A DNA stretch of 6,196 nucleotides. It comes from Candidatus Latescibacterota bacterium. Its GTDB lineage: Bacteria > JAAXHH01 > JABIQT01. Shown in pieces: positions 1,598-6,196 of the stretch. The translations under genes and the position numbers were made by a program. Where the stretch lies: NCBI GenBank assembly GCA_018667995.1, contig JABIQT010000077.1:1-6196 (forward strand). Reading direction: 5' to 3'. Each line of letters opens with the position of its first letter. Positions within the stretch are counted from its first letter, which is position 1. Under the pieces are notes generated by a model. The model worked only from the letters and a program-made list of their open reading frames with translations, made no database searches and had not been told where the DNA came from.

Positions 1598-2329
1598 TTA
1601 AATGAGCACATCCTCCTGATTAGAGATCAAGGTTCCTACATCTTCGCCGAGGCAGATCTTTTGCATGGCACCCGGAGCATCGAAGTCAAAAACATGAACA
1701 GGCAGATTATGATCCCTCGCGAGTAGGACCGATGACTGGTCCATAACCCGCAAATCCTGCTGAATTACGCTGTCATACCGAATGGATTTATATCTTTTGG
1801 CATCGGGGTTGATACGGGGATCACTCGTATAAATGCCATCCGTGCCATTTTTTGCTGAAAGCAATACGTCTGCCCGCAATTCAAGGGCGCGCAAAACGGC
1901 CGGATAATCGGTAGTGACATAGGGATTTCCCGATCCAGCCGCCAGGAGAATCATGTTGCTCTGATCAAGATGCCGTATAGCTCTCAGTCTGATATACGGT
2001 TCGGCGACGGTGTCTATGGGAATGGCGGTCATGACCCGAACATCGGTGGCCCCGCGGGAGGTCAGGACGCCACGCAGCATCATACAGTTGATCACGGTGG
2101 AGATCATGCCGATATTATCCGCCTCAGCACGTTCAATTCCCCATCGCTCGCCAAGTTCGCCCTTGAATATATTCCCACCACCGACTACGATACCGACCTG
2201 GACATTTAAGCTCCGGAGATTCATTACTTCTTCCCCGATGTGATTCAGAGCATCCGGCTCAAAACCCCAGGGCCTTTCGCCTGCAAGAGCACCGCCACTC
2301 AACTTAATCAGGACACGGGTATACCGCAC
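1598..2329 (-). CDS. pyrH: Uridylate (UMP) kinase PyrH homologue, divergent and away from its usual neighbours
   Basis: Amino-acid-kinase-fold protein of the PyrH family, whose known reaction is ATP-dependent phosphorylation of UMP to UDP in pyrimidine synthesis. The GTG start at 2329 gives 243 residues, the usual family length. Seen: RVLIKLSGGAL (5-15) at the phosphate loop, VVGGGNIFKG (48-57), EADNIGM (69-75) with conserved Asp71, AEPYIRLRAIRHL (109-121), AGSGNPYVTTD (131-141), SAKNGTDGIY (158-167), DPRINPDAKRY (170-180), MDQSS (196-200), ARDHNLPV (204-211). The fold and most nucleotide-site motifs are intact, so an active kinase is likely. Departures: KLSGEAL is KLSGGAL, FRG is FKG, GTGNP is GSGNP, and the usual MDLTA/MDxTA is MDQSS. 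PyrH normally sits between tsf and frr; here it follows a sugar kinase and precedes a CocE hydrolase, which suggests a paralogue. A TTG at 2362 would add 11 residues, but AGGAG five bases before GTG 2329 favours the shorter form. Confidence 0.84.
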   Translation of the reverse strand: MRYTRVLIKLSGGALAGERPWGFEPDALNHIGEEVMNLRSLNVQVGIVVGGGNIFKGELGERWGIERAEADNIGMISTVINCMMLRGVLTSRGATDVRVMTAIPIDTVAEPYIRLRAIRHLDQSNMILLAAGSGNPYVTTDYPAVLRALELRADVLLSAKNGTDGIYTSDPRINPDAKRYKSIRYDSVIQQDLRVMDQSSVLLARDHNLPVHVFDFDAPGAMQKICLGEDVGTLISNQEDVLI

Positions 2330-2334
2330 GTTTT

Positions 2335-2339
2335 CTCCT
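2335..2339 (-). promoter_or_regulatory. Ribosome-binding site selecting the GTG start of the pyrH homologue
   Basis: AGGAG on the minus strand with the five-base spacer AAAAC before GTG 2329. It argues for the GTG start over the in-frame TTG at 2362, which has its own weaker GAGGA eight bases upstream. The protein from GTG begins directly with the family-typical RYTRVLIKLSG. Confidence 0.65.
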
Positions 2340-2389
2340 GTGGTCTTGTTCTCGTTGTCCAAGTCAGATTCCTCATTTTGGGCCCTGAA

Positions 2390-2427: not shown

Positions 2428-3915
2428 TTATGCTTTACCTTGGTGAAACCACGGCTTCAGCGTTGGATATAAGGCACAATAGTGCTGATAATAGGCATCG
2501 TACAACGTGACGCTGTCCGGTCTGTGACATACGTGATCCGTCAATTGAACGGTTCGGCTGCAAGCTTCCTCAAAATCCTTGAATATCCCGACACCAACCC
2601 CCGCTATCAGAGCGGCACCGATTGCGGAAGCATCACCGAGTTCCATGAGACGCCCTTCTTGACCGAACACATCCACCAGAATCTGTCTCCACAGCTTTGA
2701 CCTGACTCCGCCCTCGCCAAGGCGAATTTCCGTCACAGGTAAGCCTATACCATGAATACAGTCAAGGGCCTGCCGCAGATCAAAGGCAACGCCTTCCATC
2801 AATGATCGAACCATGTGGCGCTTTCCGTGCTGAAGGGTAAGTCCCAACCACCCTCCGCGCGCCCTGGCATCCGGATGAGGTGTCCCCGTCCCTGCCAGCC
2901 ACGGCATGAAGAAAAGCCCGTCGCTTCCGACTGGCGCTTCCGAGGCCATAGTCGTGAGCGATTCATAGTCGTCGCCGAACTGTTCACTAAACCACGATAG
3001 GCTGCCTCCCCCAGTGTAACTGCATCCCAACCAGAAATAAGCATCAGGGACGCTGTGACACATGGGCCACAGCTGATTGAATGCCCCATCATGCAGATCT
3101 TGAGCAAAGGTGATTGCGTGTCCTGCCGTGCCTATCCCTATCCCCACTATTCCTGGTTTTATGGCACCACTTCCCACGGCCATACAGGCCATATCACCGC
3201 CTCCGGCACAGACCGGCGTGCCGGCGACAAGTCCCGTAGCATCTGCAGCGCTCTGGGAAACAGAACCAGCAGGAGCGGTTGATTCCACTACTTCTGGGAA
3301 CAAATCATCACGGACCCCCACGCTCTCTAATATCTCTCCACTCCAGGCACGGTTGTAGAGATCCAGGGCACCGGATACAGACGCATCAGAAACGTCCGAG
3401 AACATCTCTCCTGTGAGGCGAAACCGAACCCAATCCTTGGGAATCAGTACCCACCTTGACGCACGGTAGACATCCGGCTCGTTACCTTGGAGCCACAGTA
3501 TCTTGGCCAGAGTATTTACGGGATTCAGGATTGTGAGCGCACGTTCCCTGAGCTGCCGTTCCGCTCTTTCGTTGGCCTGATCACATTCCGTCTGTGACCG
3601 GCCATCAAGCCATAGAATTGCGGATCGAAGTGGCTCTCCATGTTGATTGGTTGGTACGGCACCGTTCATCTGGCCGGAAAGCGCGACTCCCTGAATATCC
3701 GATGCGGACAGAGGGACGGGCAGACTGGCGATACTCTCTTGTATGGTTACACATACGGCGTGCCACCAGTCATCGGGCGCCTGTTCAACCCATCCCGGTC
3801 GGGGCGTAGACATGGGATAGGATGCGCTTGCCGTTGCGACCGGCGTGCCTCCTTGATCCAGTATAATGGTTTTGGTACTCGACGTGCCAAGATCGATGCC
3901 CATTACGAGAGACAT
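2428..3915 (-). CDS. xylB: FGGY-family carbohydrate kinase, xylulokinase-like
   Basis: Cytoplasmic ATP-dependent sugar kinase of the FGGY family, closest in wording to xylulokinase; 495 residues, full family length. Seen in order: GIDLGTSSTK (6-15), the N-terminal phosphate-binding loop with Asp8; GWVEQAPDDWW (41-51); SGQMNGAV (80-87); ILWLDGR (100-106); LIPKDWVRFRLTGE (157-170); SDVSDAS (173-179); AGGGDM (237-242) with Asp241 as catalytic base; GIGTAGH (260-266); MPWLAGTGTPHPD (337-349), ARGGWLGL (352-359); LGEGGVRSKLWRQIL (399-413) and GDASAIGAAL (427-436), the C-terminal nucleotide-binding motifs. E. coli XylB has a QMH motif contacting xylulose; here it is QMN (Asn84), and the Asn usually next to the catalytic Asp is Met242, so the sugar may differ. 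It starts 7 bp after the phosphotriesterase-family stop, with GGGGGA upstream inside that gene's end, so translational coupling is likely. A second in-frame ATG at 3903 is possible but less likely. Confidence 0.92.
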   Translation of the reverse strand: MSLVMGIDLGTSSTKTIILDQGGTPVATASASYPMSTPRPGWVEQAPDDWWHAVCVTIQESIASLPVPLSASDIQGVALSGQMNGAVPTNQHGEPLRSAILWLDGRSQTECDQANERAERQLRERALTILNPVNTLAKILWLQGNEPDVYRASRWVLIPKDWVRFRLTGEMFSDVSDASVSGALDLYNRAWSGEILESVGVRDDLFPEVVESTAPAGSVSQSAADATGLVAGTPVCAGGGDMACMAVGSGAIKPGIVGIGIGTAGHAITFAQDLHDGAFNQLWPMCHSVPDAYFWLGCSYTGGGSLSWFSEQFGDDYESLTTMASEAPVGSDGLFFMPWLAGTGTPHPDARARGGWLGLTLQHGKRHMVRSLMEGVAFDLRQALDCIHGIGLPVTEIRLGEGGVRSKLWRQILVDVFGQEGRLMELGDASAIGAALIAGVGVGIFKDFEEACSRTVQLTDHVCHRPDSVTLYDAYYQHYCALYPTLKPWFHQGKA

Positions 3916-3922
3916 AGCTTAC

Positions 3923-4846
3923 TTATTCCCCCGTCAGGAATCTTCGCGGATTATTAATGAGCAGATCGTCGATAGCGGCATGATTGAACAGTTCAGCCTT
4001 GAGCCGGGGAATATACTTCGTGAGCACAAAATCCAAGCCCGGTCCCCCTCCGTAAGATCGCCAGTAACTTGGTCGCCCCAGATCGTTACCGAGCAGGATC
4101 CGGTTTCCCTGTCCTTCGTCTATCATTTTGCGCAACACGCTATTGCGATATTCGTCGGGTCCGTATTTTGTCTTTCCGGGACAGTCATATCCTACATATG
4201 CGCCAGACTGGGTGATCCGCCGGTGTTCCCAGAAGTCGGGATTCCGATCCATGTGGCTCAAGCAGATTCGTTCCGGCTTCACGCCATGGGATACCAGGTA
4301 CTCCACCTGTTCAAACCCCATTGTCCCGCCCTCGGTATGTGTGATGATCGGCACACCCGTTTCAAGATGCACCTTGGCAGCCACACGAAGCAGCTTCCGG
4401 TCCTGTTGGTTCATGGTATTGTAGCCACTACCGCCCTTCACGATCGCTGCTCTCACGGAGGTTCCGTCTATGCCGTCCACAATATCGCTGATACAGTCTT
4501 TTATCAGATCCGCGTCGGGCGTTTCAAATACGGAGGGATCACAGAAATAGGGTTTATTGTATCCCGTGATTGCTATTATATGCGCCTGGGGGACGAGTTC
4601 GCCGACACGCTGCATCTTGGCAATATTACGACCAAAATCAATGGCCGTCATATCGATGATTGTACGGCCGCCGGCGTGAACAAACGTAGTCAGCTCCTCC
4701 GCAGACTTCTCTGGATTATTCAAAGCAAAATCCGGATCTTCTTTCAACAACCATTCCGGAGCATCGAAGGCAAGGTGCTCGTGATAGTCGACCACCCCAA
4801 GATCTTCGCCTCTGACCTCACCGTTAAGTGTCATAACGGTAGCCAT
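3923..4846 (-). CDS. Phosphotriesterase-family (COG1735) metal-dependent hydrolase, probable phosphorylated-sugar lactonase
   Basis: Amidohydrolase-superfamily TIM-barrel enzyme of 307 residues, full length for COG1735. Visible binuclear metal set: His22 and His24 (DYHEHL), Lys137 (AAIVKGG) as the carboxylated bridging lysine, His170 (PIITHTEGG), His198 (CLSHMDRN) and Asp255 (LLGNDLGRPSY). The C-terminus NNPRRFL is typical. COG1735 includes phosphotriesterases and several lactonases. Lys225, Lys227, Arg258 and Tyr261 have the same spacing as Lys242, Lys244, Arg275 and Tyr278, which I recall as the phosphate-binding residues of Listeria Lmo2620, a lactonase for D-lyxono- and L-ribono-1,4-lactone-5-phosphate. 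This and the sugar kinase 7 bp downstream support a phosphosugar-lactonase role over organophosphate hydrolysis. ATG 4846 is preceded by AGGGAGG four bases upstream. It may be expressed with the creatininase-family gene 143 bp upstream or from a promoter in that gap. Exact substrate is inferred, not shown. Confidence 0.92.
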   Translation of the reverse strand: MATVMTLNGEVRGEDLGVVDYHEHLAFDAPEWLLKEDPDFALNNPEKSAEELTTFVHAGGRTIIDMTAIDFGRNIAKMQRVGELVPQAHIIAITGYNKPYFCDPSVFETPDADLIKDCISDIVDGIDGTSVRAAIVKGGSGYNTMNQQDRKLLRVAAKVHLETGVPIITHTEGGTMGFEQVEYLVSHGVKPERICLSHMDRNPDFWEHRRITQSGAYVGYDCPGKTKYGPDEYRNSVLRKMIDEGQGNRILLGNDLGRPSYWRSYGGGPGLDFVLTKYIPRLKAELFNHAAIDDLLINNPRRFLTGE

Positions 4847-4989: not shown

Positions 4990-5727
4990 TCAATCCTGCT
5001 CCAGGGCCTTAGACCAGATGTCAGCAATACGATCGACACAAGCGTCAAACCAGCGTTGCCCCTTGTCCGCGGAAGCTACAGTGGCATCGCCGAAAACACC
5101 TGATTCGCTCAAGGCGCCCATGGGTAAATTTGAAATGTCGTATTCACGTGAGTGCGCCGGATACTCACTCACTGCTCTGTCCATCCGAACGAGTTCCGGG
5201 CGCAGATGCAGCATCAATGATGTCTCAAATTCCTCTGCATGGAAGTTCATAGGCTTCCACGCAACCGAATCGGCATCCCACATAATCTCAGCAAGGTCCG
5301 GGTAGAAGACGTTCAGTAGCTTCATGTCCATCTCGTCGGCCAGCTCCCGTATCGTGTACTTTATGGGGGCCGGATTGGCACCATGGGCCGACAGAAACAT
5401 CAAGGCCTTGCATCCGTGCCTGTCCATGTTACCGGCTATGTCACGTAACACGGATCGGAACGTATCGAACGAAAAGGTCAAGGAGCCTGGAAAGTCACGC
5501 CATACCCAGGAATACCCTATAGGAATTGCCGGAAGGACCAGACCCCGGCTCTTTTTCGCGACGGCGTTGGCGAGTTCACCCGCAAGAATCGTGTCGGTAT
5601 TCTGAGGGAGATGGGGGCCATGCTGCTCCGTGGCACCCAACGGTAGGATAGCGAAAGGATAGAGATCCAGATATGTCTGACATTCCTGCCAGGTAGCGGT
5701 TCCTGCGTCGAGAGATCGGGTGCTCAT
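4990..5727 (-). CDS. Creatininase-family amidohydrolase
   Basis: Metal-dependent amidohydrolase of the creatininase family (creatinine amidohydrolase, FAPy deformylase ArfB and mycofactocin MftE belong here), 245 residues, usual length. It hydrolyses a cyclic or acyclic amide; substrate unknown. Seen: LPLGATEQHGPHLP (28-41) with Glu34 and His36, NTDT with Asp45, IPIGYSW (69-75), FPGSLTFS (79-86), FLSAHGAN (111-118) with His115, and HAEEFETSLML (163-173) with Glu166/Glu168, together giving the expected metal and active-site set. Variants: SAHGAN replaces the common NGHGGN, and HAEE replaces HAGE. The start is ATG 5727, which overlaps the upstream methyltransferase stop (TGATG), with AAGGTGG seven bases upstream; a TTG three bases earlier (5730) is the only alternative. 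The overlap implies co-expression with the methyltransferase. Creatinine itself is not a safe substrate call, because most family members act on other amides. Confidence 0.92.
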   Translation of the reverse strand: MSTRSLDAGTATWQECQTYLDLYPFAILPLGATEQHGPHLPQNTDTILAGELANAVAKKSRGLVLPAIPIGYSWVWRDFPGSLTFSFDTFRSVLRDIAGNMDRHGCKALMFLSAHGANPAPIKYTIRELADEMDMKLLNVFYPDLAEIMWDADSVAWKPMNFHAEEFETSLMLHLRPELVRMDRAVSEYPAHSREYDISNLPMGALSESGVFGDATVASADKGQRWFDACVDRIADIWSKALEQD

Positions 5728-6196
5728 CAACCGTCCACCTTCCGGCCTATACCAAGTAGTTCGTCTTTTCCAAGCAGCTTCATAAATCCTGTGGCCGCCG
5801 CATTGATCAGGGGATGAGCCCCAACCAGACGTGAAATCATGAGTTCGGCACCTCCAGTCTCGGTGGAGCTGAAGGCCATCTGGGATAGGTCACGGTCGCG
5901 CACGTAGGATTGGCAGGCCAGGGTCACAAAACCACTCATGCTAAGCGTGATATCGAGCGATTTAGGCGAGAAATACACGGGATGTTCACTAGGTTTGATC
6001 TGGTATTTACGGCACAGCCAGGAGTCGAAATTAATGGTAACGATAACCACGATACCGTCCGTCTGCAGCACGCGATTGGCTCGTCGTAACATATCAAGAG
6101 GTTGCGGCACATGTTCGATAACATCCGACAACAGGACCACATCAAATACTGGACCGAGTTCCTCTTCAAGGCCTTCGTCAAAGAAGGACTCGTGCA
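5727..6196 (-). CDS. Class I SAM-dependent methyltransferase, C-terminal part (5' end beyond window)
   Basis: The last 155 codons of a SAM-dependent methyltransferase (Methyltransf_11/23-like Rossmann fold); the frame stays open to the window edge, so the true start and the glycine-rich SAM-binding motif I are not visible. Seen near the edge: FDVVLLSDVIEHVPQP, which covers the acidic motif II strand and the DxxEHV post-motif common in this family, then MLRRANRVLQTDGIVVI, equivalent to the usual LRRxxRVLKPGGxLVI. HPVYFSPKSLDITLSMSGF resembles the HxxxFSxxxLxxLLxxxGF segment. The end, LLGIGRKVDG, resembles the conserved terminal ARK strand. A GTG at 6140 is internal and not the real start. The stop TGA overlaps the downstream creatininase-family ATG by one base. 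The acceptor (sugar, lipid, quinone or other small molecule) cannot be told from this part. Confidence 0.87.
   Translation of the reverse strand, partial: HESFFDEGLEEELGPVFDVVLLSDVIEHVPQPLDMLRRANRVLQTDGIVVIVTINFDSWLCRKYQIKPSEHPVYFSPKSLDITLSMSGFVTLACQSYVRDRDLSQMAFSSTETGGAELMISRLVGAHPLINAAATGFMKLLGKDELLGIGRKVDG
5735..5741 (-). promoter_or_regulatory. Ribosome-binding site of the creatininase-family gene, inside the methyltransferase gene
   Basis: AAGGTGG on the minus strand, seven bases before ATG 5727, within the last codons of the upstream gene. The spacing favours ATG 5727 over TTG 5730. Confidence 0.6.

What the first reader, a model, noticed from the sequence alone, without database searches (positions are those of the whole stretch)
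3923..4846. COG1735 enzyme carries a complete phosphosugar-lactone phosphate pocket
Besides the full metal set (His22, His24, Lys137, His170, His198, Asp255), Lys225, Lys227, Arg258 and Tyr261 all sit at one constant offset (minus 17) from Lys242, Lys244, Arg275 and Tyr278. I recall those residues as the distal-phosphate ligands of Listeria Lmo2620, which opens D-lyxono- and L-ribono-1,4-lactone-5-phosphate. Four of four residues with identical spacing is hard to explain by chance. It points to a phosphorylated sugar lactone as substrate, whereas automatic annotation would say phosphotriesterase or parathion hydrolase. The Lmo2620 numbering is from memory.
Basis: partly seen in the sequence, partly recalled or inferred. 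Interest (0 to 1): 0.6.

Follow-up and report, generated by a model that had tools for sequence, protein, structure and literature searches.

The report
Predicted phospho-sugar lactonase with kinase partner
A gene that standard annotation would call a pesticide-degrading phosphotriesterase is, by its ancestry, its conserved phosphate-gripping residues and its kinase neighbour, most likely an enzyme that opens phosphorylated sugar lactones, a known enzyme type newly recognised here in poorly studied bacteria.

Summary
On the minus strand, 3923-4846 encodes a 307-aa COG1735 protein. It has the binuclear-metal set H22, H24, K137, H170, H198, D255, and K225/K227/R258/Y261 align without gaps to K242/K244/R275/Y278 of Listeria Lmo2620 (3pnz; 31% identity; model rmsd 1.5 A over 304 residues). 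The constant offset is only what homology gives, and K225 and R258 also occur in E. coli PHP; K227 and Y261 are the informative sites. The quartet is invariant in all nine sampled orthologues (65-75% identity). It marks a well-supported clade with Lmo2620 and the Mycoplasma lactonase MS53_0025 and was absent from 33 other family members surveyed. New evidence is the gene neighbourhood: quartet-bearing members sit beside a phosphoryl donor in 16 of 18 loci, against 1 of 33 without the quartet. The donor is an ascorbate-type PTS in Listeria, mycoplasmas and G196, and an FGGY kinase in Alicyclobacillus, Deinococcus and this window. A creatininase-family gene is shared with Listeria and Alicyclobacillus. 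This supports phosphorylation before ring opening. Exact substrate, stereochemistry and the creatininase step remain unknown; nothing was assayed, and the ligand residues rest on recalled abstracts. I judge it a new member of a known kind.

The parts
3923..4846 (-). COG1735/PF02126 metal-dependent hydrolase, predicted phosphorylated-sugar lactonase (307 aa, ATG)
4781..4783 (-). His22, metal ligand (HxH)
   Evidence: alignment; = Lmo2620 H22
4775..4777 (-). His24, metal ligand (HxH)
   Evidence: = Lmo2620 H24
4436..4438 (-). Lys137, bridging (carboxylated) lysine position
   Evidence: = Lmo2620 K154; Glu in PHP-type members
4337..4339 (-). His170, metal ligand
   Evidence: = Lmo2620 H187
4253..4255 (-). 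His198, metal ligand
   Evidence: = Lmo2620 H215
4244..4246 (-). Arg201, further phosphate-site candidate (Arg in Lmo2620, Lys217 in MS53_0025)
   Evidence: role of MS53_0025 Lys217 recalled from abstract
4172..4174 (-). Lys225 (= Lmo2620 Lys242)
   Evidence: invariant in orthologues, also Lys in PHP
4166..4168 (-). Lys227 (= Lmo2620 Lys244; MS53_0025 Lys244)
   Evidence: discriminates the clade
4163..4165 (-). Tyr228 (= Lmo2620 Tyr245, MS53_0025 Tyr245)
4082..4084 (-). Asp255, metal ligand / general base position
   Evidence: = Lmo2620 D272
4073..4075 (-). Arg258 (= Lmo2620 Arg275)
   Evidence: also Arg in PHP
4064..4066 (-). Tyr261 (= Lmo2620 Tyr278)
   Evidence: His in PHP; discriminates the clade
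2428..3915 (-). FGGY-family sugar kinase (495 aa), 7 bp downstream of the lactonase gene; proposed phosphoryl donor step
   Evidence: XylB TIGR01312 413.6 bits, cut-off 380; adjacent in eight of nine orthologue loci; GGGD motif intact
4990..5730 (-). creatininase-family metal hydrolase (246 aa, TTG), upstream partner of the cassette; substrate unknown
   Evidence: 40% identical to the creatininase-family gene beside Lmo2620

Best explanation
The gene encodes a Zn-type binuclear amidohydrolase of the Lmo2620/MS53_0025 clade that opens the lactone ring of a phosphorylated sugar lactone. Two metals held by H22, H24, K137, H170, H198 and D255 activate a bridging water that attacks the lactone carbonyl. 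K225, K227, R258 and Y261 (with R201 and Y228) hold the substrate's distal phosphate and so fix its orientation. The phosphate is supplied by the adjacent FGGY kinase, which does here what an ascorbate-type PTS does in the Listeria and Mycoplasma operons. The product, a phospho-sugar acid, is passed to central metabolism; the creatininase-family enzyme catalyses another hydrolytic step of the same route. Shown here: the residues, clade, predicted fold and neighbourhood. Inferred: phosphate binding, lactone chemistry, order of kinase and lactonase. Unknown: which lactone, and what the creatininase homologue does.
For: Top PDB sequence matches 3pnz and 3msr. AlphaFold model pLDDT 95.3; top structural matches 3pnz/3ovg, Z 44.3, rmsd 1.5-1.6 A over about 305 residues. 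The quartet aligns without gaps to Lmo2620 and is invariant in the orthologues. Clade with Lmo2620 and MS53_0025 has support 100/98, and 100/99 with the pocket columns removed. Quartet-bearing members have an FGGY kinase or ascorbate-type PTS within 6 kb on the same strand in 16/18 loci, against 1/33 for members without it; after collapsing close relatives 7/8 against 1/33. The gene 323/326 identical to crystallised Lmo2620 lies in IIA-IIB-IIC-lactonase-creatininase-KDGP aldolase-SIS. Alicyclobacillus bridges the two layouts: lactonase-creatininase-KDGP aldolase-regulator-xylB. Own genome has no detected EIIC-GAT PTS protein. In mycoplasmas the lactonase stands in an ulaABC-ulaDEF operon, and a metabolic model independently proposed a phosphotriesterase-annotated mycoplasma gene as the missing UlaG (PMC4866288).
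Against: No assay. That the four residues bind phosphate in Lmo2620 is from recalled abstracts; the paper is not held and coordinates were not compared residue by residue. Identity to the characterised enzymes is only 31-33%, and COG1735 members change chemistry (PTER is an N-acetyltaurine amidohydrolase; Pmi1525 is crystallised with butyrate). Association counts are not phylogenetically independent, and some non-member contigs are short. One orthologue (L069/L011) lacks the kinase next door. FGGY kinases usually act on ketoses or polyols, not on lactones.
Confidence: 0.75

Rival explanations
1. The substrate is phosphorylated but is not a lactone: for example a phosphorylated N-acyl amino sugar, lactam or ester. 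The same pocket would hold the phosphate while the metals cleave an amide or carboxyl ester.
For: The family contains an amidohydrolase (PTER, PDB 9efa/9efb) and Pmi1525, crystallised with butyrate. Neighbours include SIS-domain and creatininase (cyclic amidohydrolase) genes in Listeria, and nagA/nagB-like genes by my reading in G196.
Against: The clade members with published activity (Lmo2620, Bh0225, MS53_0025, from memory) are lactonases. Ascorbate-type PTS partners import a lactone, L-ascorbate, in the known case (PMC3219644). No nag genes were recognised in the window or orthologue loci.
Confidence: 0.17
2. The enzyme opens an unphosphorylated lactone and the FGGY kinase phosphorylates the opened product; the basic pocket binds a carboxylate or is vestigial.
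For: Dr0930, GkaP and SsoPox in the same family act on unphosphorylated lactones (family knowledge). FGGY kinases include aldonate kinases such as gluconokinase.
Against: Quartet invariant in nine orthologues and shared with the phospho-lactonase clade, and different in GkaP (I, G, N, L). PTS-linked relatives would receive an already phosphorylated substrate.
Confidence: 0.06
3. It is a true phosphotriesterase or parathion hydrolase, as a family-level annotation would suggest.
For: PF02126 match 177 bits; same fold and metal ligands as PTE.
Against: PTE structures rank below the lactonases and PHP; orthologues keep sugar-kinase and creatininase-family neighbours; no resemblance to PTE beyond the common fold and metal site.
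Confidence: 0.02

Closest known systems
Lmo2620 of Listeria monocytogenes (PDB 3pnz), phosphorylated pentono-1,4-lactone lactonase
   Same: Same clade, fold, metal ligands and K/K/R/Y quartet plus Arg at 201; creatininase-family gene next door in both; phosphoryl donor next door in both
   Different: 31% identity; Lmo2620 has an insertion after about residue 100; its operon has a PTS, KDGP aldolase and SIS gene, whereas the window has an FGGY kinase and no aldolase or SIS gene in the 6.2 kb
MS53_0025 of Mycoplasma synoviae (PDB 3msr/3ovg) and other mycoplasma 'phospho-furanose lactonases' (NCBIfam NF045706)
   Same: Nearby branch in the tree; K, R, Y at 227, 258, 261 and Y228
   Different: First quartet position is Arg and position 201 is Lys; located in an ula-type PTS operon in related mycoplasmas; the window scores far below the NF045706 cut-off (190 against 630 bits)
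Alicyclobacillus dauci plasmid lactonase (NZD86_RS23675) with creatininase, KDGP aldolase and xylB
   Same: Quartet intact; creatininase-family and FGGY kinase partners as in the window
   Different: 38% identity; additional KDGP aldolase, GntR regulator and ABC transporter
E. coli PHP (PDB 1bf6)
   Same: Fold, Lys at 225 and Arg at 258
   Different: No metal-bridging Lys at 137 (Glu in PHP-type members); Ser and His at the discriminating positions 227 and 261; outside the clade

Membership tests
PF02126 / COG1735 (phosphotriesterase-like amidohydrolases) | Profile match over the full length and binuclear-metal ligands H-H-K-H-H-D | tested here: met
   177 bits against cut-off 22.4, residues 14-305; ligands present
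Lmo2620/MS53_0025 phospho-sugar lactonase clade | Monophyly with the characterised members | tested here: met
   Support 100/98 and 100/99 with pocket columns removed; the wider clade also holds two members without the full signature (Enterococcus, Haliscomenobacter)
Lmo2620/MS53_0025 phospho-sugar lactonase clade | Distal-phosphate residues Lys, Lys, Arg, Tyr | tested here: met
   that these residues bind phosphate is recalled, not read here
Lmo2620/MS53_0025 phospho-sugar lactonase clade | Hydrolysis of pentono-1,4-lactone-5-phosphates | not testable with these tools
   needs purified enzyme and substrates
NCBIfam NF045706 phospho-furanose lactonase (equivalog) | Score above curated cut-off 630 bits | tested here: not met
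   190.5 bits; the Listeria Lmo2620 gene itself gets 154, so failing this cut-off does not separate the window from Lmo2620
Phosphotriesterase / parathion hydrolase | Closest relationship to PTE/OpdA | tested here: not met
   PTE and OpdA rank below the lactonases and PHP by sequence and structure
FGGY carbohydrate kinase (neighbour) | FGGY_N and FGGY_C domains, GGGD catalytic motif | tested here: met
   actual sugar substrate not tested

The most novel reading that the evidence does not exclude
The creatininase-lactonase-FGGY cassette is an undescribed catabolic route in which an FGGY kinase phosphorylates a sugar lactone (or its precursor) taken up without a PTS, the COG1735 enzyme opens the phospho-lactone, and the creatininase-family protein carries out a new sugar-ring hydrolysis; the kinase's substrate would then reveal the natural substrate of the whole Lmo2620 clade.
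Probability: 0.35. Interest if true: 0.55.

Novelty: new member of a known kind. Interest (0 to 1): 0.36.

Why it matters
It shows a case where family-level annotation ('phosphotriesterase') would mislead and a pocket signature plus neighbourhood gives a better call, including for the Listeria enzyme itself. The exchange of PTS for FGGY kinase around the same lactonase and creatininase homologue gives a direct handle on the natural substrate of the Lmo2620 clade, which I believe is still open: identify what the kinase phosphorylates, then test that product on the lactonase.

Tried and rejected
Reading the original Lmo2620 paper by DOI: not held; text searches found no paper in the open library describing the lactonase. 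Paper searches for a described creatininase-FGGY-lactonase or PTE-creatininase-PTS operon found nothing relevant. pyrH (1598-2362) as part of the cassette: rejected, it is the sole, single-copy housekeeping gene conserved across the order and lies on another contig than the lactonase in G011. The CocE-type gene (2-1243) and the methyltransferase fragment (5727-6194) as partners: no relative within any orthologue locus. PhyH, DegT and pabB-like genes downstream in the sponge/marine orthologue loci were considered as pathway parts, but they are missing from this window and look locus-specific. The constant -17 offset as evidence in its own right: rejected, it follows from an ungapped alignment. 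Promoter and terminator scan found no more sites than shuffles.

Full report
What is there. The gene lies on the minus strand, 4846 to 3923, ATG start, 307 codons, with a clear Shine-Dalgarno sequence. It is the only PF02126 protein found in its 85%-complete genome. Upstream on the same strand is a creatininase-family gene (4990-5730). Downstream after 7 bp is an FGGY kinase (2428-3915; best NCBIfam model XylB, above cut-off), then pyrH and a CocE/NonD hydrolase. The nearest named relatives are MAGs labelled Latescibacterota, Zixiibacteriota, Gemmatimonadota and Poribacteria. In the window's own small phylum only 3 of 16 genomes have the gene.

Residue check. All six metal-site residues and all four proposed phosphate residues are at the stated positions. 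I also recall, from the abstract of the Mycoplasma synoviae MS53_0025 work, the phosphate ligands Lys217, Lys244, Tyr245, Arg275, Tyr278. Counting along the chain printed, those residues all fit with one constant two-residue offset, which corroborates the recollection but does not replace reading the papers; the Lmo2620 paper is not held. The window has Arg201, Lys227, Tyr228, Arg258 and Tyr261 at these five positions.

Is the match informative? The fixed spacing is not: any ungapped homologous stretch gives it. Lys225 and Arg258 are shared with E. coli PHP. Lys227 and Tyr261 are what separate the clade. These form one clade that also holds two members lacking the full signature (Enterococcus RLRY, Haliscomenobacter RKKY). 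Support is 100/99 on a tree built without the pocket columns; a first tree gave 100/98.

Structure. The AlphaFold model from a 23-sequence alignment has mean pLDDT 95.3. Its best PDB matches are 3pnz (Lmo2620) and 3ovg/3msr (MS53_0025): Z 43.7-44.3, rmsd 1.5-1.6 A over 304-306 residues, above PHP (Z 41.0) and PTE (about 39). A shared fold alone shows no function, since all these proteins share it. The ranking agrees with the sequence result.

Neighbourhood, the main new evidence. The crystallised Lmo2620 is 323/326 identical to the Listeria gene beside tuf. That gene lies in an operon PTS IIA-IIB-IIC (ascorbate type)-lactonase-creatininase-KDGP aldolase-SIS isomerase. The second Listeria paralogue also follows a PTS and precedes a creatininase gene. 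Mycoplasmas have lactonase-PTS-ulaD-ulaE-ulaF. G196 has a PTS, a KDPG aldolase and a creatininase gene around it. Alicyclobacillus has lactonase-creatininase-KDGP aldolase-GntR-xylB with an ABC transporter, and Deinococcus has ABC transporter, FGGY kinase, lactonase, KDPG aldolase and SIS. The window and eight of nine orthologues have lactonase and FGGY kinase adjacent, and the creatininase gene upstream wherever the contig reaches far enough. Counting FGGY or PTS within 6 kb on the same strand: 16 of 18 with the signature, 1 of 33 without (Fisher p about 3e-10; 7/8 against 1/33, p about 3e-6, after collapsing close relatives). The counts still share ancestry and some non-member contigs are short, so I read them as support, not proof. 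The two exceptions are L069 and Spirosoma; Spirosoma has a ROK-family gene, a family that includes sugar kinases, in its cluster. No EIIC-GAT PTS protein was found in the window's genome, so the FGGY kinase is the obvious phosphoryl donor. A KDPG aldolase is present elsewhere in the genome, next to a gene that looks to me like a PfkB-type sugar kinase.

Mechanism. Shown: the residues, clade, predicted fold and neighbourhood. Inferred: water bridged by two metals attacks the lactone carbonyl; K225, K227, R258 and Y261 with R201 hold the distal phosphate; the kinase acts before the lactonase. A parallel exists in ascorbate metabolism, where UlaABC imports L-ascorbate, a lactone, as the 6-phosphate and UlaG opens it (PMC3219644). 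A metabolic model of swine mycoplasmas lacks UlaG and proposes, from gene context, a phosphotriesterase-annotated gene in its place (PMC4866288), which fits the operon seen. The creatininase homologue's reaction is unknown. KDGP or KDPG aldolases in relatives, and a galactonate-dehydratase-like gene beside the Poribacteria cassette, suggest that the opened product is processed as a sugar acid.

Verdict. Observation confirmed and interpretation supported, with confidence about 0.75 for a phosphorylated sugar lactone. Which lactone, and its stereochemistry, cannot be told from sequence. It is a new member of a known enzyme kind; the FGGY-for-PTS exchange around it is the part most worth testing.

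Noticed in passing
window 1598-2362 (-): The only pyrH (UMP kinase) of the genome sits directly downstream of the FGGY kinase; it is 74-76% identical to single-copy pyrH of most order members, while G001 has a quite different one (45%).
   Followed up: partly
L073 9001-9993; PDB 3pnz: The crystallised 'Lmo2620' is 323/326 identical to the gene beside tuf, which appears to be lmo2648 in EGD-e numbering (my reading of gene order), so the name 'Lmo2620' seems to follow another strain's locus numbers.
   Followed up: partly
L075 7983-13809 and L110 7989-13922: In two Mycoplasmopsis species the PTE-family lactonase stands inside a ulaABC-ulaD-ulaE-ulaF operon with no UlaG gene in view, suggesting it may act as L-ascorbate-6-phosphate lactonase there.
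   Followed up: partly
NCBIfam NF045706, seen with the window protein (3923-4846) and L073: The 'phospho-furanose lactonase' model cut-off (630 bits) excludes the Lmo2620 gene itself (154 bits), so non-mycoplasma members stay annotated as phosphotriesterase.
   Followed up: yes
L076 1860-3922: A small Enterococcus faecium plasmid carries a clade member with a changed signature (RLRY) next to galactonate dehydratase and a PTS.
   Followed up: no
L090, L106: A different COG1735 branch (pocket residues Y, N, P, Y) also has a creatininase-family gene about 50 bp away, so the creatininase pairing extends beyond the phospho-lactonase clade.
   Followed up: no
L013, L015, L016, L017, L018: In the sponge/marine and related orthologue loci the cassette is followed by PhyH dioxygenase, pabB-like, DegT aminotransferase and an unassigned 318-aa family in largely conserved order.
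   Followed up: partly
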